From contig NZ_CP160452.1 in the NCBI RefSeq assembly GCF_041295575.1, positions 682,001 through 746,000 on the forward strand: 64,000 nucleotides of DNA, in the 5' to 3' direction. Below the pieces are notes generated by a model, which saw only the letters and a list, made by a program, of their open reading frames with translations, was not told where the DNA came from and did no database searches. Origin of the DNA: Sporosarcina pasteurii. Its GTDB lineage: Bacteria; Bacillota; Bacilli; Bacillales_A; Planococcaceae. Below are positions 31,404-51,782 of this stretch, one piece after another (positions within the stretch are counted from its first letter, which is position 1; every line of letters begins with the position of its first letter). Position numbers and translations under genes: made by a program.

Positions 31404-31429
31404 ATGAATTGGACGCAGGAACGTTAATC

Positions 31430-31462: not shown

Positions 31463-31493
31463 TTTCAATACAATGAGAGTAAGGTGAAAAGTA

Positions 31494-32966: not shown

Positions 32967-33056
32967 TTCTTCTTGGGCCCTTATTTGTTATGATGATTGT
33001 AACTGTTACGTGAGAATACCCTTAACTTTTATGAAAAACTAATTTAGTACGAGCGT

Positions 33057-33105
33057 ACGGGATGCTGATATTGTTTTACTTTACCATCAGCTATCCCGTT
33101 TTTTA
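33057..33105 (+). terminator. Terminator after gntK
   Basis: ACGGGATGCTGAT (33057-33069) pairs with ATCAGCTATCCCGT (33086-33099), followed by six T. It lies only 32 bp before larB, whose promoter must then be within or read through this region. Confidence 0.75.
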
Positions 33106-33136
33106 TCATCATTTATAAATAAGGTGAGTGAGATCA

Positions 33137-33892
33137 ATGGAAGAAATTTTAAAGCAAGTTCAATTAGGTACTTTAAGTATAGAAGAAGCAAAAGGAAAGC
33201 TCGCAACGTATGAAAATTTAGGATTTGCAAAAGTGGACCATCATCGTAAAAAACGTCAAGGCTTTCCAGAGACGATATACGGTGAGGGTAAGACAGCTGA
33301 GCAAATTACTACCATCATCACTGCAATTCAAGCGCATGGGGATGACATATTAGTCACAAGGATTTCAGGCGAGAAAGCGACAGAAGTAAGAAGTACACAT
33401 CCTGAATTAATTTACAATGAGATTGCTGAAATTTTATATACACGTAATGAACGGAAAAATCGTTTTGCAAATGGTTTTATTGCAGTATTATGTGCAGGCA
33501 CGTCAGATTTAAGAGTTGCTGAAGAAGCGGCTGTTACTGCTGAGGCATTTGGTTGTGAAGTTCGTCGATTTTATGATGTTGGAGTAGCTGGAATTCATCG
33601 ATTACTAGATAATATCGAAGAAATTCAGCAAGCGACGGTTTCAATAACAGTGGCAGGGATGGAAGGAGCACTACCGAGCGTCGTCGGTGGACTTGTTTCA
33701 CATCCAGTGATTGCCGTCCCGACAAGTGTGGGTTACGGTGCGAATTTTAATGGTTTATCGGCATTACTCACGATGCTTAATTCTTGTGCATCAGGCATTA
33801 GCGTTGTAAATATCGACAATGGATACGGGGCAGCGTACAGTGCTGCGTTGATTCATCGATTGGCACAACCAACAGAAGAGGGGCAGTCATAA
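33137..33892 (+). CDS. larB: LarB, pyridinium-3,5-biscarboxylate mononucleotide synthase
   Basis: 251 residues from ATG 33137 (RBS AAGGTGAG). The C-terminal half is PurE-like: GFIAVLCAGTSDLRVAEEAAVTAEAFGCEVRRFYDVGVAGIHR and VAGMEGALPSVVGGLVSHPVIAVPTSVGYG are diagnostic. LarB carboxylates and hydrolyses nicotinic acid adenine dinucleotide to start nickel-pincer nucleotide synthesis. Its TAA overlaps the ATG of larC2 by one base. A decayed second larB lies at about 42570. Confidence 0.95.
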   Translation: MEEILKQVQLGTLSIEEAKGKLATYENLGFAKVDHHRKKRQGFPETIYGEGKTAEQITTIITAIQAHGDDILVTRISGEKATEVRSTHPELIYNEIAEILYTRNERKNRFANGFIAVLCAGTSDLRVAEEAAVTAEAFGCEVRRFYDVGVAGIHRLLDNIEEIQQATVSITVAGMEGALPSVVGGLVSHPVIAVPTSVGYGANFNGLSALLTMLNSCASGISVVNIDNGYGAAYSAALIHRLAQPTEEGQS

Positions 33893-34362: not shown

Positions 34363-34393
34363 TTTCATCATTAACGATACGCTTTTTAGTCGT

Positions 34394-34418
34394 AAAAGCC
34401 GTTCTCCGTAACGGCTTT
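34394..34418 (+). terminator. Hairpin after larC2, possible weak terminator
   Basis: AAAAGCCGTT (34394-34403) pairs with AACGGCTTT (34410-34418), followed by CACATT, so no real T run. The same stem sequence recurs at 45804-45826. Confidence 0.45.
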
Positions 34419-34507
34419 CACATTAATCAACGACATTGCACTGTTTTATAGATGACCATTAAATAGGGCGGCAACCGATCTATCCGTCTTTGTTTAGGCA
34501 AGACTCA

Positions 34508-35182
34508 TTAAAAATTACTGTCCATCACTTCGTCCCACCGTGATTTTGCTTCTTTTTTCAAGCTATGAATATGCATGGTTATCGTATCTGTAAAGGCGTT
34601 TAAATTACGGTCTTTTAATGCTTTTATTAAATTCCAATGATCCTTATGTCTGGCAATTGTGCTTTCTAACGATGTTGAGTAAACAATACGAGATAAGGAA
34701 ACATGCGTATTTAAGGAATTGTAAATCTGTTTTACATTTGCATTGTTTGCTAATTCAACTAATGTTTTATGCAATCGAATATCTAATTCCAAATACTCTT
34801 CAAAGGGAAATGGGCTTAAATCAAGCAAATTATCCATATTAACTACAATTTCAGTGCATTCGTCGATTTGTCTTTTGGCAGCGCTTTCAATTATTTGCTC
34901 AGCTGCCCATTTTTCAATCATTAAACGTGCATCGAGAATGTCAGTAAATTCATTAAAACTTAATTGTGAGACGTATGTTCCTTTGCGTGGAATCACTTCA
35001 ATGAGCCCTTCATGTACCAATTGGTTAATCGCATCTTTAACAGGGGATCGGCTTACTCCGAAAGTATCTGCTAAAGTTAGGATATCTAATTTATCACCGG
35101 GTAAATACTCTCTGCTAATAATACTTTTACGAAGAATATCGTAAACTTGTTTTGTTAATGAGGACGTTTCGATTTTGATCAT
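34508..35182 (-). CDS. GntR-family regulator, FCD (FadR) subfamily
   Basis: 224 residues. A winged helix (residues about 8-72, GDKLDILTLADTFGVSRSPVKDAINQLVHEGLIEVIPRKGTYVS) is followed by an all-helical FCD ligand domain with Asp/His metal-site residues (ELDIRLHKTLVEL, HKDHWNLIKAL, MHIHSL). It is divergent from the second TRAP locus. A near-perfect palindrome overlapping that locus's promoter is its likely operator. Effectors of this family are usually sugar acids or other carboxylates. Confidence 0.9.
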   Translation of the reverse strand: MIKIETSSLTKQVYDILRKSIISREYLPGDKLDILTLADTFGVSRSPVKDAINQLVHEGLIEVIPRKGTYVSQLSFNEFTDILDARLMIEKWAAEQIIESAAKRQIDECTEIVVNMDNLLDLSPFPFEEYLELDIRLHKTLVELANNANVKQIYNSLNTHVSLSRIVYSTSLESTIARHKDHWNLIKALKDRNLNAFTDTITMHIHSLKKEAKSRWDEVMDSNF

Positions 35183-35373
35183 ATCTATCGATCTCCTTTA
35201 TAAGTCTTTCATGTGTCATGTAAAATGTTACAAGTAGTTATGCATATTGATTGCACCAATATTATAGCTACTTACCATTTGAAAATCAATTTGATGAATT
35301 TTGAAAATGGTAGGTTGCGAATATTATTATCAATACGTAATGCTTTTTGTACGTAATATATATTAAAAGCATA

Positions 35374-35427
35374 TTGACAAACGTATACTTGTCGACTAGT
35401 ATGTTAGGTATATTGAAAGCGCTTTCC
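35374..35427 (+). promoter_or_regulatory. Promoter with GntR palindrome and cre, second TRAP locus
   Basis: TTGACA (35374-35379), 17 bp, TAGTAT (35397-35402). ATACTTGTCGACTAGTAT (35385-35402) is an 18-bp palindrome with one mismatched pair and a TTGTCGAC core typical of FCD-GntR operators; it covers the spacer and -10. The cre box TGAAAGCGCTTTCC (35414-35427, one mismatch) lies just downstream of the start site. Both would repress. The rest of 35183-35373 is AT-rich without a gene. Confidence 0.75.
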
Positions 35428-35491
35428 GTTTAGGGAGTTTTCAGTAAAAATATTTGTATTTGAAAATTATAGAAAAGGGGAGGATTTTGAA

Positions 35492-36517
35492 GTGAAGAGA
35501 AATTTGTGGATTGCTGTACTATTTATTTTAACTAGTTTATTAATTGTTGCTTGTGGAGATGTGGACTCAGATACTGGATCTGATTCTGGTGGAAAAAAAG
35601 TTGTTATTAAAGTTGCAAATAACTTTGGAATCGATCATCCACATAATGTTGCGATACTAGAAAAGTTTAAGCCGATTGCTGAGAAAGAATCTAATGGAAC
35701 ATTAGAAATTCAAATTTTCGAAAATAATAAATTAGGCGCGGAATTAGAAACATTTGATGGCGTAAGAAATGGAACAATTGAAATGGCTATCGCCGGTACA
35801 ACTGTATCAGGTAATCCGGAAAAACTAAAGGTTGGTGACTGGCCTTTCTTATTTGAAAATTTAGATCATGCCAAGGCAGCTTATACTGGGGAAGTTGGCG
35901 CGGAAGTCGCTGAGGAATTAGAAGAGAAAACAGGCGTGAAAGTATTAGGTTGGGCCGCAAATGGTTTCCGTGCATTTAGTAGCCATGAGCCAGTTGAAAG
36001 TATGGAGGACTTTAAAACTTATAGATTAAGAATGCCAGATTTACCAGAATATATTGCTATTGGAGAAAGTTTAAACGCGAATGTAATTTCTTTACCGTTT
36101 TCAGAAATATTTACTGCATTGGAACAAAAAGTTGCGGATGGACAGGATAACCCAATATCTACTTTAGTGGCAAATGGTTTCTATGAGGTTCAAGAAAACG
36201 TTTTACTTTCCAACCATGTTTTCAGTCCTAACCTATATGTGATTAATGGAGACTTGTGGGAAAATAAATTAACAGATGAACAAAGAAATGCAATTGAAAA
36301 AGCAGCTCAAGCTTCTACCGAATACCAATGGCAGTTATATGGTGAAAGCGTTGAAAATGATATTGCATTCTTAAAAGAAGAAGGTTTAACTGTCACTGAA
36401 CCTAGTAAAGAGTTCAGACAGGATATGGTTGATGCGATGGAGCCGTTCTTTGCAGAGCGTAAAGAAAAATATACTTGGGCAGAAGAAATGTTACAGAAAA
36501 TTAAAGATCTAAAATAA
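35492..36517 (+). CDS. dctP: TRAP transporter substrate-binding lipoprotein, DctP family (second system)
   Basis: 341 residues; lipobox LIVAC with Cys21, then an Asp/Ser/Gly-rich linker. The core TYRLRMPDLPEYIAIGESLNANVISLPFSEIFTALEQKVADGQDNP carries the conserved Arg and Asn for a carboxylate ligand. GTG start after AAGGGGAGG. It is unusually separated from its permease genes (40547-42363) by four metabolic or regulatory genes. The neighbouring YiaK-type reductase suggests a keto-gulonate-like ligand, as in E. coli YiaMNO. Confidence 0.91.
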   Translation: MKRNLWIAVLFILTSLLIVACGDVDSDTGSDSGGKKVVIKVANNFGIDHPHNVAILEKFKPIAEKESNGTLEIQIFENNKLGAELETFDGVRNGTIEMAIAGTTVSGNPEKLKVGDWPFLFENLDHAKAAYTGEVGAEVAEELEEKTGVKVLGWAANGFRAFSSHEPVESMEDFKTYRLRMPDLPEYIAIGESLNANVISLPFSEIFTALEQKVADGQDNPISTLVANGFYEVQENVLLSNHVFSPNLYVINGDLWENKLTDEQRNAIEKAAQASTEYQWQLYGESVENDIAFLKEEGLTVTEPSKEFRQDMVDAMEPFFAERKEKYTWAEEMLQKIKDLK

Positions 36518-36524
36518 TTCTCAA

Positions 36525-36560
36525 AGGGGAATGTCCTACAGAGGCATTCCCCTGTATTTA
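36525..36560 (+). terminator. Hairpin after dctP, probable partial terminator
   Basis: AGGGGAATG (36525-36533) pairs with CATTCCCCT (36545-36553), followed by GTATTT. It probably raises the amount of binding protein relative to downstream genes. Confidence 0.65.
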
Positions 36561-36639
36561 AACCAATATTTCGTTTGGATTTTTAAATATATTTCACGCT
36601 TGAATAACAAATCGTTGTAGTTGAGAGGGGAATCGTCCA

Positions 36640-37605
36640 ATGAAAATGAAAAAAGTTCGTTGGGGAATTATTGGGTGCGGTGATGTGACTGAAGTGAAAA
36701 GTGGCCCCGCATTCCAAAAAGTCGAGAATTCAGAATTAGTTGCAGTAATGCGTAGAACTGGTCATTTGGCTAAGGATTATGCAGAAAGACATGGTGTGCC
36801 GAAATGGTACGATGATGCTGATAATTTAATAAATGATCCGGAAGTCGATGCAATCTATATTGCAACACCGCCAAGTTCCCATAAAGAGTATGCAATAAAG
36901 GCTGCAAAAGCAGGGAAACCCATTTATGTTGAAAAGCCGATGGCGCTTAATTTTGACGAATGTAACGAAATGATTGTTGCCTGTAAAGAGGCAGGTGTTC
37001 CTTTATATGTTGCGTACTACCGCCGGGCAATGCCTAGATTTTTGAAGATAAAAGAATTGCTGGACAATAATGCAATTGGGGAAATTCGCTTTGTTATAAC
37101 AACGCAATATCAAAGACCTTCGGAAGACTTACAGGATGCATGGAGGGTTCAGCCTGAGATATCCGGTGGCGGATTGTTTTTTGATATGGGCAGTCATACG
37201 TTAGATATTTTAGATTTTCTACTCGGACCTATTCGGGAAGTGAAAGGTTTTACTGCCAACCAAGCAGGGAATTATCGGGCGGAAGATATCGTAACAGGTG
37301 CATATGTATTTGAATCTGGAATCCATGGTACAGGAAATTGGTGTTTTTCTGCCTATGAAGATGTAGATGTAAATGAAATCATCGGAAGTGAAGGAAAGTT
37401 AACCTTCTCCACTCTAGGAAATGAGCCAGTTTTGTTAACAAACTCCGATGGAATAACCGAATTTACCTATGAAATGCCAGAGCATGTCCATCAGCCTCTT
37501 GTTGAAACAATCGTGGAAGAATTAACCGGCACGGGTGGAGTGTGTCAAAGTAATGGTACTTCAGGTGCCAGGACTAATATGGTGATGGATAAATTTTTTG
37601 TATGA
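36640..37605 (+). CDS. Gfo/Idh/MocA family NAD(P)-dependent oxidoreductase
   Basis: 321 residues. VRWGIIGCGDVTEVKSGPAF is the cofactor turn, PIYVEKPMA the Lys motif, and GGGLFFDMGSHTLDILDFLLG the active-site helix. The YYRRAMPRFLKIKELL stretch resembles the 1,5-anhydro-D-fructose reductase-like branch (family memory, not tested). It is the second gene of the GntR-controlled locus, so it likely acts on the sugar acid imported by that TRAP system or a derivative. Confidence 0.85.
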   Translation: MKMKKVRWGIIGCGDVTEVKSGPAFQKVENSELVAVMRRTGHLAKDYAERHGVPKWYDDADNLINDPEVDAIYIATPPSSHKEYAIKAAKAGKPIYVEKPMALNFDECNEMIVACKEAGVPLYVAYYRRAMPRFLKIKELLDNNAIGEIRFVITTQYQRPSEDLQDAWRVQPEISGGGLFFDMGSHTLDILDFLLGPIREVKGFTANQAGNYRAEDIVTGAYVFESGIHGTGNWCFSAYEDVDVNEIIGSEGKLTFSTLGNEPVLLTNSDGITEFTYEMPEHVHQPLVETIVEELTGTGGVCQSNGTSGARTNMVMDKFFV

Positions 37606-37650
37606 AGTGTTGATAAACACATATGACATTACTTTTATGGAGTTGAGAAT

Positions 37651-38652
37651 ATGAGAATAAAATATGAAGACATGAAAAACGAATTTAGAAGAGTATTTAT
37701 TAAAAAAGGTTTTACTGAACAAGCAGCTGAAGAAGCAGCCACGTCTTTTACAAATAATAGCCGCGATGGGGTTTATTCACACGGTGTGAATAGATTTCCA
37801 AGAGTGATTGAATATATAGAGAAGGGTTACATAAAGCCAAATGCAGTACCGGAAAAAATCAGTTCTTTTGGTGCAATTGAAAGATGGAACGGAAACTTAG
37901 CATTAGGAAACTTAACAGCAAAACACTGTATGGATCGGGCAATGGAAATAGCATCTGAATTTGGTATTGGGTGTGTTGCTCTACAAAATACAAATCATTG
38001 GATGAGGGGTGGCGAGTATGGCTGGCAAGCAGCGGAAAAGGGATATGTTGGAATTCTGTGGACTAACACGCAGCCGAATATGCCTGCCTGGGGAGCTATA
38101 GATAGAAGGATTGGGAATAATCCTATCATTTTAGCATTGCCAAGAGAAGAAGGACCGGTAGTTGTAGATATGGCGATGTCGCAATTTTCTTACGGTAAAA
38201 TAGAAGAATATCGGTTGGAAGGAAAAGAGTTACCAGTACCAGGAGGTTTTGATAATGCGGGGAATTTATCAAAAAATCCGAAGGAAATAGAAGAAACATG
38301 GCGCGTATTGCCGGTAGGCTTTTGGAAAGGTTCGGGCTTATCCATCGTACTCGATCTCCTAGCTTCCATGTTATCGGGTGGAAATACGACACATGGTATT
38401 GGAAAATTAGGCGATGATGAATACGCATTATCGCAAGTGTTTATGGCTATATCACCGGAGAAACTGGGGGATATGTCGGAGACGGAAGAGAAAATTAACG
38501 AATCAATTCAATATATTAAAGACTCTGTTCCAGCCTCAAGTGAAGGCGAAGTATATTATCCTGGGGAGCGAACGATGAACACGCGCGAGGAAAATTTGAA
38601 ACTGGGAATACCTGTCGATGAGGGAGTCTGGAATAAAATTAAATCTATGTAA
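37651..38652 (+). CDS. dlgD: 2,3-diketo-L-gulonate reductase-like enzyme (YiaK/DlgD)
   Basis: 333 residues of the LDH2/MDH2 family. [38 protein letters not shown] and [20 protein letters not shown] match the E. coli YiaK segments almost residue for residue, including the catalytic His. YiaK reduces 2,3-diketo-L-gulonate to 3-keto-L-gulonate with NAD(P)H. Its presence with a TRAP system parallels the E. coli yiaK-yiaMNO operon. No UlaD/SgbE-like decarboxylase or epimerase is seen in the window, so the downstream route differs or lies elsewhere. Confidence 0.88.
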
Positions 38653-38741
38653 TAAGTTGTTGTGGGATATATAGGGGGGACACCTCGTCCTTATTGGACG
38701 GGGGTGCTGCCCCATTGCCTTACGAACAGAGGGGGATATAC

Positions 38742-39761
38742 ATGAAAGCAATTCGAATACCTAAAGCACATACAATTGAACTATTAGATATTGAGGAACC
38801 AGTGATAGAAAAAGATAATCAGGTAAAAGTTAAGGTGAAAAGGGTCGGTATTTGCGGATCAGATATGCATATTTACCATGGCACTAATCCACTTGCAACT
38901 TATCCGAGAATAATTGGGCATGAAATAACCGGAGTAATTGTAGAGTTAGGTAGAGATGTGAATAAAGTATCCGTTGGCGATCATGTTGTGATTGAACCAA
39001 TTCATTATTGTGGGGAATGCTATGCATGTAAATCTGGTAGACCCAATGTATGCAAAGATGTAGCAGTACTTGGTGTTCACGAAGATGGCGGAATGCAAGA
39101 ATTTATAATCCTTTCTGAAAAACAAGTGCATAAAATGGATTCAGATATTGAGTGGGATGAAGCGGTCATGGCAGAACCTTATACAATTGGTGCACAAGCC
39201 GTATGGAGAGGTAATGTGCAAGATGAACAAACAGTTTTCATTCAAGGGGCTGGTCCAATTGGCATTACGGTTTTAAAAATGGCAAAGATTCTTGGTGCAA
39301 CGACCATTATTTCTGATTTAACAAATGAAAGATTGGCTTTTGCGAAAGAAAACGGCGCAGACTATACAATTAATCCATTTGAGATAGACACAACGGAAAA
39401 AATAAATGAAATTACAAATGGTGAAGGGGCCAATGTTGTAATTGACGCGGTAGGGACGCCACAAACATTTGAATTAAGTGTTCAGATAGCTTCTCCGGCA
39501 GGTTATGTTGTGACGCTAGGTTTTAATGCAACACCATCTGCAATCGCTCAAATGCTCATTACGAAAAAGGAATTAACAATTGCGGGTTCTAGACTACAAA
39601 CGAATCAATTTGAAAAGGTAGTAAAGCTAATTAATGAAAGGAAATTAACACATAATGGTCTAGTCACACATAAATTCCATGTTGACGACGTGAAGGAAGC
39701 GTTTAAGTTTATCAAGGAAAATCCTGATAAAGTTAGAAAAGCGGTTATTTCATTTGAATAA
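38742..39761 (+). CDS. Zinc-dependent medium-chain sugar-acid/polyol dehydrogenase (RspB/LgoD-like)
   Basis: 339 residues from ATG 38742 (RBS AGAGGGGG; the frame is open from 38694). GICGSDMH (catalytic Zn Cys), [12 protein letters not shown] (His, Glu), the four-Cys structural zinc set [17 protein letters not shown], and [14 protein letters not shown] for NAD binding are all intact. Sequence style resembles the RspB and L-galactonate 5-dehydrogenase (LgoD) branch. It probably oxidises a hexonate such as L-gulonate or L-galactonate (inference). Confidence 0.85.
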
Positions 39762-39844
39762 TTGACTTGAAAAACCACCTTGATTTTTAGAACCGCCAAA
39801 TCAGAAGGTGCTTATGTAAGAAGTATGAATAGTAAAGGACGAGA

Positions 39845-40528
39845 ATGAAAATGAAGTTTCCTGCCAATTGGTTAACGAGTGACTCCTTGGGCGAGCTTAT
39901 TTCGAGTGAGTTAAGATTTCAAATCATAAATGGAGAGATTGAAGATGGGGCTGTTTTAAGTGAAAATATGATTTCAAAATCATTTGAAACGAGCAGATCT
40001 CCAGTTAGGGAAGCATTTAAAACGTTAGAATTAGAAGGCCTTGTGACCCCGGGACGAATGGGTATTACTGTGCAAGGCTTAAATGAAGAGGATATTAAAG
40101 AAATCTATGATGTTAGGTTCTTATTGGAGGGTTTTTCCATCCGGAAAATATTTGAGGGTTTTGATTCGGAAGAGGCATCTGAATTTTATAAAATTGTCGA
40201 TCTTATGAAATTACATGCTGACCATAATGATTTCATGGAATTCGCCTTTCAGGACTTACTTTTTCATGAAACATTAATCATGCGTGCAAATCATAAAAGG
40301 GTCTCTTATTTTTGGAGAAATATCCGAAATATTATCCTCTGTTTACTGGTAGTTGCTACAGAGAAACGATTTAAGGAAGTTAAAGAGGAATTAGATAACC
40401 TGATATTCCGACATAGAATACTTATAGATGCGTTAGTGGAGAAGGATCAGAACAAAATTGAAAAATGGCTGGAAGACCATTTACTGGATACGAATGCCAC
40501 GGTAATGAGTGCTTATTTAAAGAAATAA
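39845..40528 (+). CDS. GntR-family regulator, FCD subfamily (second)
   Basis: 227 residues; winged helix at about 12-75 (ENMISKSFETSRSPVREAFKTLELEGLVTPGRMGITV) and an FCD domain with LLFHETLIM and FRHRILIDAL metal-site histidines. It is embedded between the dehydrogenase and dctQ genes, unlike the divergent GntR at 34508, so the locus has two regulators. ATG codons at 39845 and 39851 are both possible; AAAGGA is 5 and 11 bp away respectively. Confidence 0.86.
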   Translation: MKMKFPANWLTSDSLGELISSELRFQIINGEIEDGAVLSENMISKSFETSRSPVREAFKTLELEGLVTPGRMGITVQGLNEEDIKEIYDVRFLLEGFSIRKIFEGFDSEEASEFYKIVDLMKLHADHNDFMEFAFQDLLFHETLIMRANHKRVSYFWRNIRNIILCLLVVATEKRFKEVKEELDNLIFRHRILIDALVEKDQNKIEKWLEDHLLDTNATVMSAYLKK

Positions 40529-40546
40529 AAGTGTAGGGGGAATAAT

Positions 40547-41086
40547 ATGAAGCGGTTTGCAACATATTCCGATAAGCTATTGAAATTGTTTGCGGTTATT
40601 TGCGTCGTTGCTATGAGTCTATTAGTATTCTCAAATGTTGTTTCTAGATACATATTTGACTCAAGTATTCCGTGGGCGAATGAGATGTCTCGATTCTTTT
40701 TTGTGTGGTTAGTCTTCTTTGGAGCGATTGAGGCCCTAAAAAGTAATGAACATATGGCTGTAGATTTATTGGTTGGGAAATTACCTAAAGTGGTTAGAAA
40801 AATCTCATTTGTTTTTATTAATTTAGTAATATTATTTTTACTTTATATGATTTTTGATGGAAGTATAAAAATTACACAGTTAAGTATAAATAGTCCAGCG
40901 CCTGCAACAGGTATCCCATTTTCATTTATGAATGGAATGGGCATTATTTTAAGTGTTGGAATGGCTATAATTGTGATCACTCGCTTAATCACGGTTTTAT
41001 TTTTCAAAGATGATGTCGATAAATATATGTTGCCCAAATCGGAAGTAGAAGAATTAGTCAATGCGGAAGAGGGGAACAAATTATGA
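40547..41086 (+). CDS. dctQ: TRAP transporter small permease, DctQ family (second system)
   Basis: 179 residues, four membrane helices, with PWANEMSRFFFVWLVFFGAIEALKSNEHMAVDLL as the conserved helix-2/3 region. RBS TAGGGGGAA. Its TGA overlaps the ATG of dctM (ATGA). It partners the DctP encoded at 35492. Confidence 0.91.
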   Translation: MKRFATYSDKLLKLFAVICVVAMSLLVFSNVVSRYIFDSSIPWANEMSRFFFVWLVFFGAIEALKSNEHMAVDLLVGKLPKVVRKISFVFINLVILFLLYMIFDGSIKITQLSINSPAPATGIPFSFMNGMGIILSVGMAIIVITRLITVLFFKDDVDKYMLPKSEVEELVNAEEGNKL

Positions 41087-42363
41087 CTTTACTGATTTTC
41101 GTAGTTGTACTTTTTGGATTAATTCTAATTGGGATGCCGATTGCATTTGCCCTCTTAGCGACCTCAGTGTCTCTCATGTTTTACCTAGATGTTTTTGATA
41201 CGCAGATTATGGCAACGAACCTGATTAGTGGTGCCAATAACTTCCCACTCATGGCGATTCCGTTTTTTATCCTTGCAGGGGAAATTATGAATGCGGGAGG
41301 CATGTCAAAACGAATCGTTGAATTTGCCATGTCACTTTTCGGACATATTCGCGGTGGATTAGGTTATGTAGCAATATTTGCGGGGCTTCTATTTGCAGGG
41401 TTATCCGGTTCGGCGGTTGCGGATACGGCTGCACTTGGAGCAATATTAATCCCTATGATGGTACAAGCGGGTTATAGCAGGGAAAAATCAACGGGTTTAA
41501 TTGCTTCAAGTGGTATCATTGCACCAATTTTACCACCTAGTATTCCCTTAATTGTTTTCGGTGTGACGAGTGGTGTTTCAATTACGAGTTTATTCATGGC
41601 TGGAATTGTTCCAGGGATTTTGATGGCGATTTGTCTAGTGATTGTTTGGAGAATTCTGATGGGTAAAGATATGATTCAAACGCTTCCTAGAAAAGGTGCC
41701 AAAGATGTTTGGAAAGGCTTTCTTAGTTCATTCTGGGCGCTATTATTACCGGTCATAATTATTGTAGGTTTACGTGGCGGCATATTTACCCCAACTGAAG
41801 CGGGGGCAGTTGCTGCATTTTATGCGCTATTAGTAAGTCTATTAATTTATCGTGAAATGAAAATTTCATCGTTATACCAAGTGCTTATTTCAACTGCTAA
41901 GACCACGAGTACGGTAATGTTTTTAATTGCTGCAGCAATGGTCTCAGCTTGGTTAATTACAGTATCGGACATCCCAACACTGATTAGTGATTTCTTAGGA
42001 CCTTTTGCTGGAAGTCCAACTTTGCTAATGTTTGTGATTGTTATTATCTTATTTATTGTCGGTACAGCGATGGATATTACGCCGGCCATTTTAATTCTAG
42101 TACCAATTTTGATGCCTTTAGTAAAGATGGCTGGTATTAATGAAGTATATTTCGGTATTATCTTTGTATTAACGGCGACGATTGGTCTCATAACGCCACC
42201 GGTTGGAACAGTTATGAACGTGGCTGCGGGAGTGGGGAAAATTACGATTACCCAGTTTGTTAGAGGTACATGGCCATTCCTGCTCGTATATGGAATCCTT
42301 GTAATTATATTAATATTGTTCCCATCTATTGTTTTAGTACCATTAGAGTTTTTAGTGAAGTAA
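41083..42363 (+). CDS. dctM: TRAP transporter large permease, DctM family (second system)
   Basis: 426 residues, about 12 helices. PFFILAGEIMNAGGMSKRIV, FAGLSGSAVADTAALGAILIPMM and IAPILPPSIPLIVFG are the transport-core motifs. It has the same length as the first DctM, but the sequence is clearly diverged, so the two systems are not a recent duplication. It is the last gene of the GntR-controlled operon. Confidence 0.94.
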   Translation: MTLLIFVVVLFGLILIGMPIAFALLATSVSLMFYLDVFDTQIMATNLISGANNFPLMAIPFFILAGEIMNAGGMSKRIVEFAMSLFGHIRGGLGYVAIFAGLLFAGLSGSAVADTAALGAILIPMMVQAGYSREKSTGLIASSGIIAPILPPSIPLIVFGVTSGVSITSLFMAGIVPGILMAICLVIVWRILMGKDMIQTLPRKGAKDVWKGFLSSFWALLLPVIIIVGLRGGIFTPTEAGAVAAFYALLVSLLIYREMKISSLYQVLISTAKTTSTVMFLIAAAMVSAWLITVSDIPTLISDFLGPFAGSPTLLMFVIVIILFIVGTAMDITPAILILVPILMPLVKMAGINEVYFGIIFVLTATIGLITPPVGTVMNVAAGVGKITITQFVRGTWPFLLVYGILVIILILFPSIVLVPLEFLVK

Positions 42364-42456
42364 TCGTTAAAGACGATGGGGGCAGAAACGTTGTCGGAAG
42401 GTGCTAGGATAACTATAAATGAAGCCCCTTTTGGAAATCTTTTCTCAGAGATTAAT

Positions 42457-42496
42457 AAAGGAAGTTGACGATTTATCAATCTGTCGACTTCCTTTT
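42457..42496 (+). terminator. Terminator of the second TRAP operon
   Basis: AAAGGAAGT-TG-AC (42457-42469) pairs with GT-CG-ACTTCCTTTT (42483-42496). Confidence 0.75.
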
Positions 42497-42569
42497 GTGA
42501 GCTCTTAGTTGTAAAATAGCTTAGGAATATGTATTTTCAAGCAATCGCTTGAAATTGAAGAAAGTATTG

Positions 42570-42760
42570 AATTTTTCCACCGGGAAACTGATATTCATTG
42601 CTAACTTGATAATATTGAAAAAGTTCATGAAGCAATGGTGTCGATTACTGTAGCAGGAATGGGAGATACGCTTTCGGGTGCAGACAGCTGACTTGTTTTG
42701 AATCCTGTAATTGCAATATCGACAAATGGGTTATCCGAGTTTATTCATAAATGCTCACGG
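42570..42760 (+). pseudogene. larB: Decayed larB fragment
   Basis: Translation around 42600-42720 reads LDNIEKVHEAMVSITVAGMG, then GDTLSGADS, a TGA stop, and LVLNPVIAISTNGLSE. The intact LarB at 33137 has LDNIEEIQQATVSITVAGMEG, LPSVVGGLVSHPVIAVPTS and NGLSALL in the same order. An in-frame TAA also precedes LDNIE, and part of the loop before NGLS is deleted. This is a relic of a second lar locus or of a duplication. Its 3' end runs into the RBS region of the AEC gene. Confidence 0.78.
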
Positions 42761-42779
42761 CTAGGGGAGATGGGGGAAC

Positions 42780-43703
42780 TTGCTAGAACTGGGGATTATA
42801 TTAAAAGATATTCTACTGCCGATTTTCGTCATCATGTTGATTGGTTATTGGATGCAAAAAAAGTTTCTGTTAAATGTACAAACATTGGCTCGATTAAATA
42901 TTTATTTTCTTGTACCTGCATTTATTTTTGTGAAATTATATAGTACAAAGATATCTGTGAATTTATTTGGACAGGTATTCTTGTTTTTCATTCTCTATGT
43001 CGTGATTTTATATATCATTTCGCATTTTATTGGCAAGATGATTCGGTTGGAGAAAGGTGAAAAAACGACCTTTTCGAATAGCGTTATGTTTTTCAATTCT
43101 GGAAACTATGGTGTACCGGTCAATGATTTAGTGTTTAGAAGTGACCCATTTGCAATGTCAATTCAAGTGATTATACTAACATTGCAAAATATCTTCTTAT
43201 TTTCCTATGGGATTTTTTCGTTGCAGTCCGTCCGGGTAGGGAAATTACAAGCAGCACTTGGTTATTTTAAAATGCCTGTACTGTATGCGATGTTGGCAGG
43301 GGTATCGCTAAATTACTTCGACGTTGCGATTCCATCATTTATTTGGGTACCGGCAAACTATGTTGCAGATGCGATGATTGCGTTAGCCCTCTTTACATTA
43401 GGGGCACAGGTCGCTCAAATTAAATTCACTTCTGCACTTTCCACATTGTATTATAGTTTGACGATTAGGCTAGCAATTGGCCCACTCATTGCATTAGCGA
43501 TCATATACATATTTCAAGTAGAAGGCATCGTCGCACAAGCATTGTTAATTGGATCAGCCATGCCAACTTCAGTGAATAGTGCTGTAATCGCGCAGGAATA
43601 CGATAATCATCCGGACCTGGCTGCGCAAATCGTTTTGTTTTCAACGTTAATCAGTGCGGTGACGGTTTCGATTGTGATTTTTATGGCTAGGTTGTTGTTT
43701 TAG
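42780..43703 (+). CDS. AEC-family (auxin efflux carrier) permease
   Basis: 307 residues with about ten hydrophobic segments in two halves. The conserved central FFNSGNYGVPVNDLVF and the late SAMPTSVNSAVIAQEY identify the AEC/MdcF-type family, whose bacterial members move malate, malonate and other carboxylates. The start is TTG at 42780 behind the purine-rich GGGGAGATGGGGGAA. It stands alone after the larB relic; a sugar-acid or dicarboxylate substrate would suit the locus but is not shown. Confidence 0.85.
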   Translation: MLELGIILKDILLPIFVIMLIGYWMQKKFLLNVQTLARLNIYFLVPAFIFVKLYSTKISVNLFGQVFLFFILYVVILYIISHFIGKMIRLEKGEKTTFSNSVMFFNSGNYGVPVNDLVFRSDPFAMSIQVIILTLQNIFLFSYGIFSLQSVRVGKLQAALGYFKMPVLYAMLAGVSLNYFDVAIPSFIWVPANYVADAMIALALFTLGAQVAQIKFTSALSTLYYSLTIRLAIGPLIALAIIYIFQVEGIVAQALLIGSAMPTSVNSAVIAQEYDNHPDLAAQIVLFSTLISAVTVSIVIFMARLLF

Positions 43704-43758
43704 ACGATAAAGTTTTTATCGTTAAGATCCAGTAAAAAAAGAAATTAAGATAAAATAG

Positions 43759-43787
43759 TTGTCAAAGAATCCACTCAAAAGTATAAT
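43759..43787 (+). promoter_or_regulatory. Sigma-A promoter of the antitoxin RNA
   Basis: TTGTCA (43759-43764), exactly 17 bp, TATAAT (43782-43787): near consensus. No coding frame follows, which fits a non-coding RNA starting near 43794. Confidence 0.75.
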
Positions 43788-43793
43788 AAAGAT

Positions 43794-43938
43794 ATAGATT
43801 GAATAGAATAAAAAAAGGTCGCCCGATGTTTGTGCATCGAACGACCAATGTAATAGCAGGTTCCCTTTGAGGGGACAGCATCACTTGGCGAAATAATCCA
43901 CCAGAGCGGCGAAACTCAAGGGTGGATTATTTTATTTT
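43794..43938 (+). ncRNA. RatA/SR4-like antitoxin RNA of a type I toxin-antitoxin pair
   Basis: A predicted RNA of about 145 nt runs from the promoter above to the terminator AATAATCCACC (43892-43902) / GGTGGATTATT (43921-43931) followed by a T-rich tail. It holds a first hairpin (43817-43846) and the segment GGTTCCCTTTGAGGGGACAG, which I remember from holin-like toxin loci of Bacillales. Its 3' end reaches the toxin stop codon on the opposite strand, so it is antisense to the toxin mRNA 3' region, as in txpA/ratA and bsrG/SR4. Confidence 0.7.
43809..43846 (-). terminator. Terminator of the toxin mRNA (minus strand)
   Basis: Minus-strand GGTCG-TT-CGATG / CATCG-GG-CGACC stem (43846-43817) followed by eight T. 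The toxin transcript would extend about 120 nt beyond the stop codon, the stretch covered by the antisense RNA. Confidence 0.7.
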
Positions 43939-44084
43939 GAGGCCGACAGGATGTCGGTCATGCATCCGTTGCCGCAGGACGCGGCGCTTGTAGGATGCGT
44001 ACCTTTAAAATACGCCAACGCAATGATCGACACGACTAGACAAGAAAAGCTAATCATGATTACAAGCGTCTGGAATATGGTCAC
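43932..44084 (-). CDS. Small holin-like type I toxin (TxpA/BsrG family)
   Basis: A 50-residue peptide beginning MTIFQTLVIMISFSCLVVS, with one membrane helix (about 3-26) and then GTHPTS and a Cys/Gly-containing tail. The M-T-x-x-x-x-L-x-x-M-I-x-F start is the signature of the Hol-Tox/TxpA/BsrG toxins, which disturb the cell membrane. GTG start at 44084 with a very strong RBS, AAGGGGGTG, 6 bp upstream. It is convergent with a non-coding RNA. In the 5' leader GCATCCC (minus strand, 44141-44135) can pair with GGGGTGC of the RBS, suggesting translational masking. Confidence 0.75.
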   Translation of the reverse strand: MTIFQTLVIMISFSCLVVSIIALAYFKGTHPTSAASCGNGCMTDILSASK

Positions 44085-44309
44085 TTGCAGCACCCCCTTC
44101 CGTCATGGAATATACCGTGACTAGGATTGAAAACGGGATGCTGACCACCCTTGAAAACCTATTCTATTACTTTTTTATTCTATCACACATACGTTCCCAG
44201 AAGCTATAAATAATATAGCGCTTCTATTCATATGTTTTATATATATTGATATGTTCGATAATTCTCTCAATAACACTTTTCCTTAGGTGCTATTGAGAGG
44301 TATAAGCAT

Positions 44310-44347
44310 AAAAAAAACCGTCCATTCTCATAAAGGAAGTGGACGGT
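44310..44347 (-). terminator. Terminator of the HAD phosphatase gene
   Basis: On the minus strand ACCGTCCA (44347-44340) pairs with TGGACGGT (44324-44317), followed by seven T. Confidence 0.85.
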
Positions 44348-44362
44348 ATTTATTTTGAAAAA

Positions 44363-45235
44363 TCAACGAGACATTTGTGCTTGCAATACCTTTTGGATCG
44401 CAACGCTAACGCCATTATTGCTGTTAGTTTCAGTAATATGATCACATGCTTCTTGAATTGCTTCTGGCGCATTGCCCATCGCGACTGAGCGTCCAACGCG
44501 TTCCATCATTGATAAATCATTATAGTTATCACCAATCGCCATTACTTGTTCCATTGGGATGTTTCGCGCTCTTGCTAACGCTGTTAACGCAATCCCTTTT
44601 TGAGCGTTCACGTTTGTGATTTCAAGGTTCCCTGCACCAGATGAGCTAATCGCAAGGCTTGGGATATTGTTTAGTGCTGCGCGAGCAACATCTAAATTAT
44701 CACGATTAAACGAAGTGCCTAGTATTTTGTAAATCTCACTCTGATGATCTTTTAGTACCGGATCAAATGAGTCTACAATTTGAACAATTCCTAGTTCGAC
44801 ACGACTTTCGATTTCTTTACGAATATCTTCAACGTTTGGCGTTAAATTTGCAGCTTCAGCAAGTTGAATAAATGTATCAACTTGTACTTGGATACTTTTA
44901 GCATAAACGGTTTTATCGATAAATAGTTGGCAATCGATTTCATATGACTCTAAAATAGCCATCACTTTATGAATGTCTTCATCTAATAAATGCGTTCCTG
45001 TAATGAGGTTACCAGTATTGTCTCTTACTTCGGCACCATTAATACAAATATAGGAAAGGTCGAGACCTTCTTCGTGAACAGGTTCATAAGCTTCTAAATA
45101 GCTTCTTCCTGTAGCAATTACGACTTCAATCCCTTGTGCTTGCGCTTCACGAATCGTTTTTTTATTCATTTCACTGATCGTGTGATCGGGGCTTAACAGC
45201 GTCCCATCCATATCTATTGCAATAAGGCGTATCAT
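44363..45235 (-). CDS. Cof-type HAD-IIB sugar-phosphate phosphatase
   Basis: 290 residues. HAD motif I is AIDMDGTLL (Asp8 nucleophile, Asp10), motif II is VIATGRSY, motif III Lys is in NAQKGIALTALA, and motif IV is AIGDNYNDLSMM. The class IIB cap lies between motifs II and III. These cytoplasmic enzymes dephosphorylate sugar phosphates or FMN/PLP-type substrates; specificity cannot be read. Monocistronic with its own terminator. Confidence 0.92.
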   Translation of the reverse strand: MIRLIAIDMDGTLLSPDHTISEMNKKTIREAQAQGIEVVIATGRSYLEAYEPVHEEGLDLSYICINGAEVRDNTGNLITGTHLLDEDIHKVMAILESYEIDCQLFIDKTVYAKSIQVQVDTFIQLAEAANLTPNVEDIRKEIESRVELGIVQIVDSFDPVLKDHQSEIYKILGTSFNRDNLDVARAALNNIPSLAISSSGAGNLEITNVNAQKGIALTALARARNIPMEQVMAIGDNYNDLSMMERVGRSVAMGNAPEAIQEACDHITETNSNNGVSVAIQKVLQAQMSR

Positions 45236-45370
45236 GAAAAACTCAGTCCTCCATTCAGCTTGGAACCTGATAATATCAATGTTTAACTAGAATATCAACT
45301 CACATGTATTAATGGAGTGAAAATGAACTAAAGAAAATGTTTGTGGGTGATAAATATAAATCCATAGCGC

Positions 45371-45499
45371 AATTAATCTCCGTTCCAATCGGACGCTTTC
45401 CGCGGGCACGGCCTCAGCCGCTTCCCTCGCTTCGCTCAGTCCAGGGTCTTCGGCTCGCGCTGTTCCCGCTGGAGTCGCCGATTTCCACTCCGATTAATT
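45371..45499. repeat. GC-rich Bacillaceae-type intergenic repeat, copy A
   Basis: About 130 bp, clearly more GC-rich than its surroundings. It is bounded by the inverted ends AATTAATC and GATTAATT, with a second inverted pair AATCGG/CCGATT. Inside are GGACGCTTTCCGCGGGC, GCTTCGCTCAGTCCAGGGTC and GTTCCCGCTGGAGTCGCC, phrases recurrent between genes in many Bacillales genomes. No coding content. The rest of 45236-46199 outside the two copies holds only short stop-riddled frames. Confidence 0.65.
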
Positions 45500-45786
45500 G
45501 GTGTGCAAGTTGAATTATTGGGATTTGCAGGCATAGAAAAAGGGCTCTTTAAGCACTTGGATATAGGAAATGGCTTATTGAACATATAATAGATAGTAGC
45601 GATATGAGTCCAATGGGTGTATCGGAGGCGGCCAAAGACAACGTTTCTTACTTACACCAAGCAACTGAAAAACCTGTTTATCAAGCTTAAAAGGACTTCA
45701 GGGATATTGAGTTAGCGAAGTTATTTATAAACAAAATCTATGTAAATTATATGCTCTTATTAATTTATATATAAGGAATCTCTGTT

Positions 45787-45982
45787 GATTGGAGTGCAGA
45801 GCGAAAGCCGTTACGTAGAACGGCTTTTTGCGAGTAAAAGCGAAGCGTTATGAGCAGGGATATACAAGAGGATGCCTTAATTTCTGCAAAAAGCGCAGAA
45901 ATACGGCCAATCGCAATCTGCGGTTTGCGATTGGCTCACCGCACGCCCCACCGAAAGCGTCCGCTCGGAACGGAAATCAACA
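45787..45982. repeat. Same intergenic repeat family, diverged copy B in opposite orientation
   Basis: It begins GATTGGAGTG and ends GAAAGCGTCCG-(N3)-GGAACGGAAATCAACA, the reverse complement of copy A's left part (CGTTCC...CGGACGCTTTC). The interior has been replaced or rearranged. It contains the hairpin AAAGCCGTT/AACGGCTTT (45804-45826), also found at 34394, and AATCGCAA/TTTGCGATT (about 45911-45935). Together these explain the short open frames in this gap. Confidence 0.55.
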
Positions 45983-46199
45983 TAGTTTATTTGACATTAT
46001 TAAAAATGGGATACCTAACTATTCAAGAAGAGAAAATTCCTACTTCAAATAGCACCGACAAAAACTTGATTCAATCTAAACTGCATCATATTAGCTAGAT
46101 AGAACTGGGTGTAGTATAGTATAAATGGTTTTAACCTTAATTCATGGTGAAACAGAAGCCAACTATTTTATATGACATATAAGGAAAGAGGTTACAATT

Positions 46200-47501
46200 A
46201 TGGTAAATGCAATTACATTCAACCAAACACATATAGCACAAGAAGAACTTGAAAAGCAGTTCGGGGAAAAAGTTCAACACATTCACAAGCAGATGATAGA
46301 AGGTACGTCTGTAGGTGCAGAGTTTCTTGGCTGGAAACAACTGCCGAATGAAATTGATCAAGAAGAATTAAACCAAGTATTAGCAACTGCAGAGAAATTA
46401 CGGAAATCGGCAGACGTCGTTGTTGTCATCGGCGTAGGCGGATCTTATTTAGGTGCGAAAGCAGTTCAAGACGCACTATCACCGTACTTCGGCAAGCATG
46501 AAGACAATCCAGAGGTTATTTTTGCAGGACAAAACTTAAGTGGCACGTATATGAAGCAATTACTTCAACATATTGACGGCAAAGAAGTAGCCGTTATCGT
46601 GATCTCTAAATCGGGTACGACAACAGAACCAGCGATTGCCTTCCGTATTTTACTTGAATATATGGAAAATCGATACGGTGCAGCTATGAAAGACAGAGTT
46701 GTTGCAATCACTGATAAATCGAAAGGCGCACTAAGAGAATTGGCGAATCGTTCTGGTTTTACAACTTTTGTCGTTCCAGACGATGTTGGTGGCAGATTCT
46801 CCGTTTTAACGCCTGTAGGATTACTACCGATTGCTGTTGCAGGCATCGATATTTTACAGCTATTAGAAGGCGCCAAAGATGCAGTCAAAGAATACACTTC
46901 CTCGGAATTAAGTACAAACAGTGCTTATCAATACGCTGCGCTCAGAAATCACCTGTTAAATGAAGGGTACAATATAGAAATTTTAGCAAGCTTCACACCA
47001 AACTTTGCGACATTCCACGAATGGTGGAAACAGTTATTTGGCGAAAGTGAAGGAAAAGACGGAAAAGGAATTTACCCAGCTTCTGTCGCTTATCCAACAG
47101 ACTTGCATTCTTTAGGTCAATACGTTCAAGATGGCCGCCGCGAGATTTTTGAAACGTTCGTCCAGTTCAAAGAAACAACGGCAAATTGCGCGATTCCAAC
47201 AACAGAGGATAATTTAGATGGATTAAACTATCTATCCGATAAAACGATGAATGAAATTAACGACGTCACATTACAAGCAACAATGCAAGCGCATCAAGAC
47301 GGCGGTGTTCCATTAATTCACCTGACAGTCGGTAAAAAAGATGCGTATCACATCGGCTACATCATTTACTTCTTTGAAATGGCTTGTGCAATGAGTGCTT
47401 ACTTATTAGGCGTAAACCCGTTTGACCAACCAGGTGTAGAAGAGTATAAGAAAAACATCTTTAGAATGTTAGAAAAGCCAGGGTTCGTTGAAGAAAAGTA
47501 A
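46200..47501 (+). CDS. pgi: Glucose-6-phosphate isomerase
   Basis: 433 residues, the short Bacilli type. VVVIGVGGSYLGAKAV, VISKSGTTTEPAIAFR (sugar-phosphate loop) and GGRFSVLTPVGLLPIAVAGIDI are diagnostic, and the C-terminal GVEEYKKNIF region is present. It interconverts glucose-6-P and fructose-6-P, so it receives the glucose-6-P made by beta-phosphoglucomutase downstream. RBS AAGGAAAGAGG. Confidence 0.97.
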   Translation: MVNAITFNQTHIAQEELEKQFGEKVQHIHKQMIEGTSVGAEFLGWKQLPNEIDQEELNQVLATAEKLRKSADVVVVIGVGGSYLGAKAVQDALSPYFGKHEDNPEVIFAGQNLSGTYMKQLLQHIDGKEVAVIVISKSGTTTEPAIAFRILLEYMENRYGAAMKDRVVAITDKSKGALRELANRSGFTTFVVPDDVGGRFSVLTPVGLLPIAVAGIDILQLLEGAKDAVKEYTSSELSTNSAYQYAALRNHLLNEGYNIEILASFTPNFATFHEWWKQLFGESEGKDGKGIYPASVAYPTDLHSLGQYVQDGRREIFETFVQFKETTANCAIPTTEDNLDGLNYLSDKTMNEINDVTLQATMQAHQDGGVPLIHLTVGKKDAYHIGYIIYFFEMACAMSAYLLGVNPFDQPGVEEYKKNIFRMLEKPGFVEEK

Positions 47502-47512
47502 ATCGCTATATT

Positions 47513-47558
47513 AAAAACTATGTCTGATTAACTGAAGAGTTAATCGGCATAGTTTTTT
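47513..47558 (+). terminator. Terminator after pgi
   Basis: AAACTATG-N3-GATTAACT pairs with AGTTAATC-N2-CATAGTTT with a 4-nt loop and a run of T. Confidence 0.85.
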
Positions 47559-47564
47559 ATTTAT

Positions 47565-47709
47565 AAAGTATGCAATGTTTTACCGAAAGAAATCCATGAA
47601 TACAAAAAAGAACGCAACGTCTCCCAAAAAGTTCACAACGCTATCAAAGTATGCAACGTTTCACCGAAAGAACTTAACGAATCTCGTAAAGTTCACAACG
47701 ATAAAGGTT
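47565..47709. repeat. Degenerate tandem repeat, about 20-bp unit, seven copies
   Basis: Units begin with AAAGT or AAAGA and contain CAACG: AAAGTATGCAACGTTTCACCG and AAAGTTCACAACG are the best preserved. The unit boundaries advance by 19-21 bp through the stretch. There are no spacers between units, so it is not a CRISPR. It sits between the pgi terminator and the LacI-controlled promoter. The translated frame through it (73 codons) is a by-product. Confidence 0.65.
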
Positions 47710-47850
47710 CAAAATGCCTGTTTGAGGGCCTTTTCAATACTTAGTTGGGTAATAAGTTTGTGTGTGATGATTAATTATAGAGCGAAAGGCATATGAAAGT
47801 CAGATGTAATTCATTGACAATCGAAAAATGGCATACTATACTCGATGTAC

Positions 47851-47944
47851 CAAAAACGTTTTCGGTAGTTGATTTATCTCACTGCGAAAACGTATCTATT
47901 TTAATATTTACAAAAACGTTTTCGTAAAACTGAAAGCGTTACCA
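47851..47944 (+). promoter_or_regulatory. LacI-type operators and cre before the GH65 operon
   Basis: AAAAACGTTTTCG occurs twice (47852-47864 and 47912-47924); the second lies in a 22-bp near-palindrome with TTTAC/GTAAA arms (47907-47928). A third partial site, GCGAAAACGTAT, is at 47884. All suit the LacI-family regulator encoded in the operon. TGAAAGCGTTACCA (47931-47944) is a one-mismatch cre directly before the RBS GGGAGGTG. Confidence 0.72.
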
Positions 47945-47957
47945 GGGAGGTGTAGTT

Positions 47958-50342: not shown

Positions 50343-50414
50343 TTTATTGTTAGTTAGTAAAATGTTTTTCATTTTATTTACTATAAATATTAAAAAGTAA
50401 TAGGAGGAGTTCAA

Positions 50415-51677
50415 ATGAAATTCCGTAAAAGATTGTTAAGTAGTCTTTTCATTGGTGTCTTAATGCTAATTTTAGCTGCTTGTAGTGGTGACAGCGGCGG
50501 TGAAGGAGGAAAATCTAACGACGGAGAGTCTGGAAAATCATCAGACCAAAAAATCACGATTTTCCAAAGTAAAGTAGAAATTTCTGATCAATTAGAAGCA
50601 CTTGCGAAAGAGTATGAAGAAGAAACGGGCGTCGAAGTTGAAGTTTGGGGTACAACGGGTGATGACTATTTCCAACAGTTACAAATTCGTCTGAATAGTG
50701 ATCAAGGACCATCAATCTTTAGTCTACAAAACGTAACAGAAGCTGAGCGTCTAAAATCGTATGTACATGATTTAAGTGATGAAGATTACGTAGAGCATAT
50801 TGCACCTGGTATGGCTTTAGAGTTAGATGGGAAAGTTGTTGGAATTCCTTACGGTGTTGAAGGATTTGGATTAGTGTATAACAAAGATTTAGTAAGTCCT
50901 GAAGATGTAGCAGACTATGAATCTTTCGTGAAAACGTTAGAAAAGTTTAAAGCAGAAGATATTAACGGTTTGGGATTAGCGAAAGATGCTTATTTCTTAA
51001 TTGGTCATATTATTAACCATCCATTCTCGTTACAAGATGATTTCTATTCGTATATTGATCAGTTAACTGCTGGAGATGTGACAATGGCAGAAACTGAGAC
51101 GTTCCAAGAGTTTGGTAAATTCATGGAAGCAATTAAAGAAAATACGCCAAGTCCACTAGACGTTTCATACGATGAGGAAATCGGTGACTTTGCGGCAGGA
51201 AAGTCTGCAATGATTCACCAAGGTAACTGGGCATACGGGATGATTTCTGATTTCGATGTTGACTTTGAAATTGGTATGTTGCCATTGCCATTACAAGGCA
51301 ACGATAAGTTAGCGGTAGGTGTAGGTAGCAACTGGGCAATTAACAGTGAAAAAGATGAAGCTGAAGTTCAAGCAGCTGTAGATTTCTTAAACTGGTTGAA
51401 TACAAGTGAAACGGGCCACAAGTACATTGTTGAAGAGTTTGGCTTCGTTCCAGCACTTACGAACATTGAAGCTGGCGAATTAGACCCACTTTCACAAGAT
51501 GTTTTAGATGCATCGAATAGCGGTGAAACAATTGCATGGTCTCAAAGTTATTTCCCAGCAGGTATCGTACCAAATGATTTCACACCTGCTGCACAGGAGT
51601 TCTTCTTATCAAAAGATATGACTGGACAGGAATTTATCGAGAAACTAGACGCAGCTTGGAAAAATGCTGTGAAATAA
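50415..51677 (+). CDS. Sugar ABC transporter substrate-binding lipoprotein
   Basis: 420 residues; signal peptide with lipobox LAAC, Cys23, then a Gly/Ser/Asp-rich linker. The SBP type 1 fold shows KEYEEETGVEVEVWGTTGDDYFQQLQIRLNSDQGPSIFSL and AAGKSAMIHQGNWAYGMI, characteristic of maltose/oligosaccharide-binding proteins. It captures the disaccharide for the two GH65 enzymes. RBS AGGAGGAG. Confidence 0.93.
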   Translation: MKFRKRLLSSLFIGVLMLILAACSGDSGGEGGKSNDGESGKSSDQKITIFQSKVEISDQLEALAKEYEEETGVEVEVWGTTGDDYFQQLQIRLNSDQGPSIFSLQNVTEAERLKSYVHDLSDEDYVEHIAPGMALELDGKVVGIPYGVEGFGLVYNKDLVSPEDVADYESFVKTLEKFKAEDINGLGLAKDAYFLIGHIINHPFSLQDDFYSYIDQLTAGDVTMAETETFQEFGKFMEAIKENTPSPLDVSYDEEIGDFAAGKSAMIHQGNWAYGMISDFDVDFEIGMLPLPLQGNDKLAVGVGSNWAINSEKDEAEVQAAVDFLNWLNTSETGHKYIVEEFGFVPALTNIEAGELDPLSQDVLDASNSGETIAWSQSYFPAGIVPNDFTPAAQEFFLSKDMTGQEFIEKLDAAWKNAVK

Positions 51678-51699
51678 AGGAGATTGTATCTCTAACCTA

Positions 51700-51745
51700 A
51701 AGGATTTGCTGAACATGTCTACAATGGCAAGTTCAGCATTTCCTT
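51700..51745 (+). other. Hairpin between binding-protein and permease genes
   Basis: AAGGATTTGCTGAAC (51700-51714) pairs with GTTCAGCATTTCCTT (51731-51745), 13 of 15 matched, then CATTC. It is likely a processing or partial termination structure keeping binding-protein mRNA in excess. Confidence 0.6.
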
Positions 51746-51782
51746 CATTCTAAAGTGATTAGAAAAGAAAGAGGGGGTTGAC

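What the first reader, a model, noticed from the sequence alone, without database searches (positions are those of the whole stretch)
42570..42760. Relic of a second larB gene beside the second TRAP locus
About 40 codons match the LarB core in order (LDNIE, VSITVAGM, PVIA-ST, NGLS) but carry two stops and a deletion. A second nickel-pincer locus, or a duplication that linked regions 3 and 4, once existed here.
Basis: seen in the sequence. Interest (0 to 1): 0.55.

Follow-up and report, generated by a model that had tools for sequence, protein, structure and literature searches.

The report
Broken larB copy beside acquired operon
A short, decayed copy of the cofactor gene larB lies where larB normally stands in sister species, because an 8.4-kilobase sugar-acid uptake operon was inserted there and the intact larB now lies upstream of it; it is a genuine gene fossil, but an ordinary kind of one.

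Summary
Window 42587-42732 is a larB fragment: nhmmer with a genus profile E=2.8e-21; NCBIfam LarB E=2.2e-4, the only family listed at E<=10; 24 of 45 residues and 93 of 135 bases identical to the window's intact larB, without a gap; two in-frame stops. It covers residues 156-200 of 254, lacks the conserved NSCASG cysteine, and its constrained codon positions have decayed: a pseudogene.

Position explains it. In 9 of 10 congeners with larB the order is larA22-SDR-FGGY-larB-larC2-AEC, larC2 and AEC 21-57 bases apart. Here 8381 bp (34364-42744) stand in place of 7 bp of sister genome G067. They hold a 2,3-diketo-L-gulonate-type TRAP/YiaK operon without close relatives in the relatives searched. 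The relic closes its right end, beside the AEC flank. Best reading: larB was duplicated when the operon integrated; the right-hand copy decayed and its larC2 was deleted. I found no sign of a second complete nickel-pincer locus. Donor and recombination route are unresolved, and a dating test is in mild tension with this reading.

The parts
34364..42744 (.). 8381-bp segment absent from the larC2-AEC gap of sister genome G067 (7 bp there); its right end is the larB relic. Ends are ends of blastn alignments, so approximate by a few bases
   Evidence: larC2-AEC adjacent in 9 of 10 congeners
33128..33892 (+). intact larB, 254 aa
   Evidence: NCBIfam LarB 307.7 bits
33892..34362 (+). larC2, last gene before the inserted segment
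   Evidence: NCBIfam nickel_LarC2 153.2 bits
34508..35182 (-). GntR/FCD regulator in the segment
   Evidence: Pfam
35492..36517 (+). dctP2, TRAP solute-binding protein
36640..37605 (+). GFO/IDH/MocA oxidoreductase
   Evidence: unique at E<=1e-60 in 261 family genomes
37651..38652 (+). YiaK family (3-dehydro-L-gulonate 2-dehydrogenase model, 493.2 bits, cut-off 316)
38694..39761 (+). Zn-dependent dehydrogenase
   Evidence: below equivalog cut-offs
39845..40528 (+). second GntR/FCD regulator
40547..41086 (+). dctQ2, YiaM-like small TRAP permease
   Evidence: below cut-off
41083..42363 (+). dctM2, YiaN-like large TRAP permease
   Evidence: dctM over cut-off, YiaN below
42444..42508 (+). inverted repeat (26-nt arms, 13 nt apart) after dctM2; possible transcription end, not among the sites of the terminator scan
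42780..43703 (+). AEC (auxin efflux carrier/Mem_trans family) transporter, the gene that follows larC2 in 9 of 10 congeners

Best explanation
The stretch is a dead, truncated copy of larB. Shown: it is larB; it is broken; it lies at the right edge of an 8381-bp segment in the larC2-AEC gap, a gap that is 21-57 bases in the 9 congeners that have it. Inferred: integration of the diketogulonate-type TRAP operon left the larB end of the locus on both sides, as a single-crossover integration would. Selection kept the left copy (larB-larC2). The right copy drifted and lost its start, its end and larC2 up to the AEC flank. It makes no LarB: two stops, 45 of 254 residues recognisable, the conserved cysteine region gone. 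The cell's LarB comes from the intact gene at 33128-33892.
For: Identity as larB: control. Decay: 11 of 37 first and 8 of 43 second codon positions changed where 10 genus larBs agree, 15 transitions and 4 transversions, 11 of 19 being G>A or C>T; two functional genus larBs differ at no more than 8 of 90 such positions. Synteny: 9 of 10 congeners have FGGY-larB-larC2-AEC; junctions at 34363 and 42745 against G067; at most 12 bases between relic and AEC flank. Relic in the same larB subclade as own, G067, G056, G045, support 98/99. Operon without close relatives among those searched.
Against: No duplicate of larC2 or FGGY is left to prove a flanking repeat. The relic is not nearest to the own larB: 42 differences, against 40 for G067 and G045; holding relic and own together costs 0.71 log-likelihood units, p-AU 0.128, and the relic is a long branch with 22% of columns filled. 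If decay began after the split from G067, about 11.8 of 80 sites should have changed; 19 have (P=0.02). The donor was not found.
Confidence: 0.62

Rival explanations
1. The larB fragment, already dead, came in as the end of the foreign DNA: the donor, in or near this genus, had the TRAP operon beside a larB relic, and recombination in the AEC flank brought both.
For: Decay looks older than the split from G067 (19 changes against 11.8 expected, P=0.02); the relic is as far from own larB as from those of G067, G045, G056 (40-42 of 135 differences).
Against: No such donor seen: the two best GFO relatives (71-73%) have no other insert gene and no larB within 10 kb; no relic elsewhere in the 68 genus genomes searched. 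The age test assumes equal rates, and the AT-ward bias of the dead copy would inflate it.
Confidence: 0.26
2. An old tandem duplication of larB-larC2 stood before AEC in the ancestor; the right copy was already decaying when the operon landed between the copies, and other lineages lost it.
For: Fits the age hint.
Against: 9 of 9 congeners with this gap have 21-57 bases in it and no spare larB; needs independent clean losses.
Confidence: 0.09
3. The stretch is still used, for example as a short peptide or RNA between the TRAP operon and AEC.
For: A short frame is open between the two stops.
Against: Changes fall on amino-acid-changing positions; no Rfam family here; no sign of constraint.
Confidence: 0.01
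4. Chance resemblance, or a PurE fragment.
For: LarB and PurE share the AIRC domain; AIRC gives E=0.05-0.09.
Against: E=2.8e-21, shuffles at most -0.4 bits, LarB the only NCBIfam family listed.
Confidence: 0.01

Closest known systems
LarB, pyridinium-3,5-biscarboxylic acid mononucleotide synthase (NCBIfam NF033503; PDB 7mj0)
   Same: 45-residue stretch colinear with LarB residues 156-200, LDNIE, VSITVAGM and PVIA included
   Different: two stops, no N-terminal half, no NSCASG cysteine
Gene remnant at the edge of a horizontally acquired segment (general kind, from established knowledge)
   Same: decayed second copy of a neighbouring gene exactly at the junction
   Different: second flanking repeat unit not preserved beyond larB; donor unknown
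yiaK/yiaMNO-type diketogulonate uptake operon (for the inserted segment)
   Same: YiaK model over its cut-off, YiaM- and YiaN-like TRAP subunits
   Different: TRAP subunits under the YiaM/YiaN cut-offs; extra GFO/IDH, Zn-dehydrogenase and two GntR genes; substrate untested

Membership tests
LarB (functional member) | full-length open frame over the NCBIfam cut-off of 175 bits | tested here: not met
   21 bits, two in-frame stops, 45 of 254 residues
LarB (functional member) | conserved cysteine of NSCASG (residue 220 of the intact copy, 221 of 7mj0); catalytic role recalled, not read | tested here: not met
   homology ends before it
larB pseudogene | significant homology to larB and not better to PurE | tested here: met
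larB pseudogene | loss of coding constraint | tested here: met
   19 of 80 constrained first and second positions changed; two stops
Duplication flanking an insertion | inserted segment with clean junctions against an empty relative | tested here: met
   9 of 10 congeners
Duplication flanking an insertion | both larB copies derive from one gene of this lineage at the time of insertion | tested here: inconclusive
   same subclade 98/99 but unresolved inside it; age test in mild tension
Second nickel-pincer locus | remnants of other lar genes beside the relic | tested here: not met
   no FGGY, larC2 or further larB trace in 34364-42800 (larA and larE remnants were not sought with a profile)
Second TRAP locus as a recent copy of the first | high identity of dctPQM | tested here: not met
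   25, 31 and 38%

The most novel reading that the evidence does not exclude
The relic came in with the operon from a lineage in which diketogulonate-type uptake and nickel-pincer cofactor synthesis formed one locus, so that a nickel-pincer isomerase once served a diketogulonate (ascorbate-breakdown type) pathway there.
Probability: 0.08. Interest if true: 0.45.

Novelty: new member of a known kind. Interest (0 to 1): 0.2.

Why it matters
It fixes how this window's second TRAP locus came to lie here: a gain in one species among those sampled, inside a locus otherwise colinear in the congeners that carry it, with the larB fossil marking the scar. It also warns that the closeness of the two TRAP loci is no evidence that they act in one pathway. 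Beyond that it is an ordinary pseudogene.

Tried and rejected
PurE origin: rejected. TRAP2 as a recent copy of TRAP1: rejected, 25-38% identity. Remnants of FGGY, other larB parts or larC2 in the segment: none above the inclusion threshold. A mosaic intact larB as trace of the crossover: own-G067 identity dips at about 33000-33750 but in the coding part stays above that to the other species; no claim made. Donor: GFO relatives at 71-73% in Oceanobacillus arenosus and Neobacillus muris have no other insert gene and no larB in their 10-kb flanks; plasmids hold YiaK relatives under 60% identity in 11 records and DNA pieces of 60-80% identity in 27 records, none covering 80% of the query. Repeats and promoter/terminator scans gave no telling flanking repeat. 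Relic's place inside its subclade: not resolvable from 135 bases.

Rows dropped before counting: of 17 larBs, the seven of 621 bases (six of other genera, and congener G034) are out of register in that table, one of them also read on the wrong strand; the codon-position counts use the other 10, all of the genus. The profile and the tree use the same 10; one search uses 6 of them. One search printed reverse-strand rows as nonsense and was redone.

Limits: the genome searches used strict E-value limits (1e-60, 1e-70, 1e-110), so they exclude close relatives only; the class searches drew 398 and 343 genomes from a larger group; one search scored at most 9 candidates a genome.

Full report
What was claimed.

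The observation. The frame at 42593 reads IHC*LDNIEKVHEAMVSITVAGMGDTLSGADS*LVLNPVIAISTN; the intact LarB of the same window has IHRLLDNIEEIQQATVSITVAGMEGALPSVVGGLVSHPVIAVPTS: 24 of 45 residues and 93 of 135 bases are the same, without a gap. The stops are TAA at 42602 and TGA at 42689. hmmscan against NCBIfam lists LarB alone at E<=10, with E=2.2e-4; Pfam's AIRC domain, shared by PurE and LarB, reaches only E=0.086 and 0.048. A DNA profile of the FGGY-larB-larC2-AEC region of 10 genus members finds 42587-42732 at 65.2 bits, E=2.8e-21. Of 2000 dinucleotide shuffles of 42364-42744, 46 gave any hit, the best at -0.4 bits. With the relic peptide as query, 63 of 398 class genomes match at E<=0.01; after the relic itself the best are the intact larBs of this genome and of G067, both 53% identical.

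It is dead. Only residues 156-200 of 254 are recognisable. The conserved cysteine of NSCASG (residue 220 here, 221 in PDB chain 7mj0; its catalytic role is recalled, the paper not being held) lies beyond the end of homology. Where 10 genus larBs agree, the relic differs at 11 of 37 first, 8 of 43 second and 0 of 7 third codon positions. Of these 19 changes 6 are G>A and 5 C>T. Two functional genus larBs differ at no more than 8 of 90 first and second positions here.

The neighbourhood. Of 261 genomes of the family, 17 have larB over the cut-off, 11 of them in the window's genus, this genome included. I read the loci of the 10 congeners. In 9 of 10 the order is larA22-SDR-FGGY-larB-larC2-AEC, with larC2 and AEC 21-57 bases apart (last matched codon to first matched codon); G034 has another arrangement. 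In the window the order up to larC2 is the same, but between larC2 and AEC lie a GntR regulator, dctP2, a GFO/IDH oxidoreductase, a YiaK-family dehydrogenase, a Zn-dependent dehydrogenase, a second GntR regulator, dctQ2 and dctM2, then the relic. Against sister genome G067, homology stops at 34363 and resumes at 42745: 8381 bp stand in place of 7. At most 12 bases lie between the recognised relic and the AEC flank.

The segment is foreign or at least rare. GFO has no match at E<=1e-60 in the other 260 family genomes. DctP2 at E<=1e-70 has three in the other 260, all at 38% identity. The YiaK-like protein has none at E<=1e-110 in 397 other class genomes, and the YiaK family is over its cut-off in this genome alone of 343; one other reaches 9.3e-61 below the cut-off. 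These strict limits exclude close relatives, not distant ones. GFO relatives at 71-73% in Oceanobacillus arenosus and Neobacillus muris have none of the other insert genes beside them. TRAP2 is no recent copy of TRAP1 (DctM 38%, DctQ 31%, DctP 25%).

Origin of the relic. A tree of 10 genus larBs and the relic separates it, with own, G067, G056 and G045, from the six others (98/99); inside that group it is unresolved, and the relic is a long branch with 22% of columns filled. A DNA search of 68 genus genomes, this one included, hit the window itself, intact larBs in four others and the AEC flank of G067. The simplest account is that integration of the operon left the larB end of the locus on both sides. 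Each surviving piece still has its ancestral outer neighbour: FGGY on the left, AEC on the right. The right copy, being spare, decayed and lost larC2. This part is inference.

Against this account. The relic is not nearest to the own larB (42 differences against 40 for G067 and G045), and the tree neither favours nor rejects joining it to own (p-AU 0.128). Fourfold sites of ten genes give 0.33 changes per site between this genome and G067, 0.16 a branch; a neutral sequence decaying since that split should show about 11.8 changes at the 80 sites, and 19 are seen (P=0.02). The test assumes equal rates and no base bias, and an AT-ward bias is visible, so it is mild evidence. It leaves room for the rival that the fragment was already dead when it arrived.

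Literature. Searches for larB with 'nickel pincer' and LarC (4 papers), 'nickel-pincer nucleotide' with pseudogene (none), LarA genomic context (14 papers of which 10 were listed) and larC1/larC2/frameshift (6 papers) showed no report of a larB relic in what I saw: listings and starts of abstracts, and passages of PMC12393405 and PMC11770544. That is no proof of absence.

Verdict. A real, well-supported larB pseudogene with a clear positional explanation; ordinary in kind. Confidence that it is a larB pseudogene is about 0.98; in the flanking-duplication story 0.62.

Noticed in passing
24104-24838 and 33892-34362: LarC is encoded in two separate pieces about 9 kb apart: a LarC1-type gene and a LarC2-type gene, each matching its own NCBIfam model fully. 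G039 has the same split with larE, larA22, SDR, FGGY and larB between; in G034 the two matches lie side by side.
   Followed up: partly
29298-30611: The LarA-type protein is NCBIfam 'nickel pincer cofactor-dependent isomerase, group 22' (564 bits), beside a mannonate-oxidoreductase-like SDR and an FGGY gluconokinase-like kinase; its substrate is not named by the model.
   Followed up: no
25285-29127: TRAP1 and larE are only 71-77% identical in DNA to G067, whereas 29358-34363 is 90% and 42745-51972 is 92-94%: the left part of the locus was probably exchanged in one of the two species.
   Followed up: no
32980-33750: Own-G067 identity dips around the FGGY-larB gap and the first half of larB, and larB has the highest fourfold divergence of the ten genes compared (JC 0.60).
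   Followed up: partly
43943-44009 (-): Bacillaceae-1 RNA (RF01690), 70 bits against a gathering score of 35, between AEC and the HAD hydrolase gene.
   Followed up: no
42364-42586: 223 bases between dctM2 and the relic, with an inverted repeat at 42444-42508, have no counterpart in the FGGY-AEC profile; origin unknown.
   Followed up: partly
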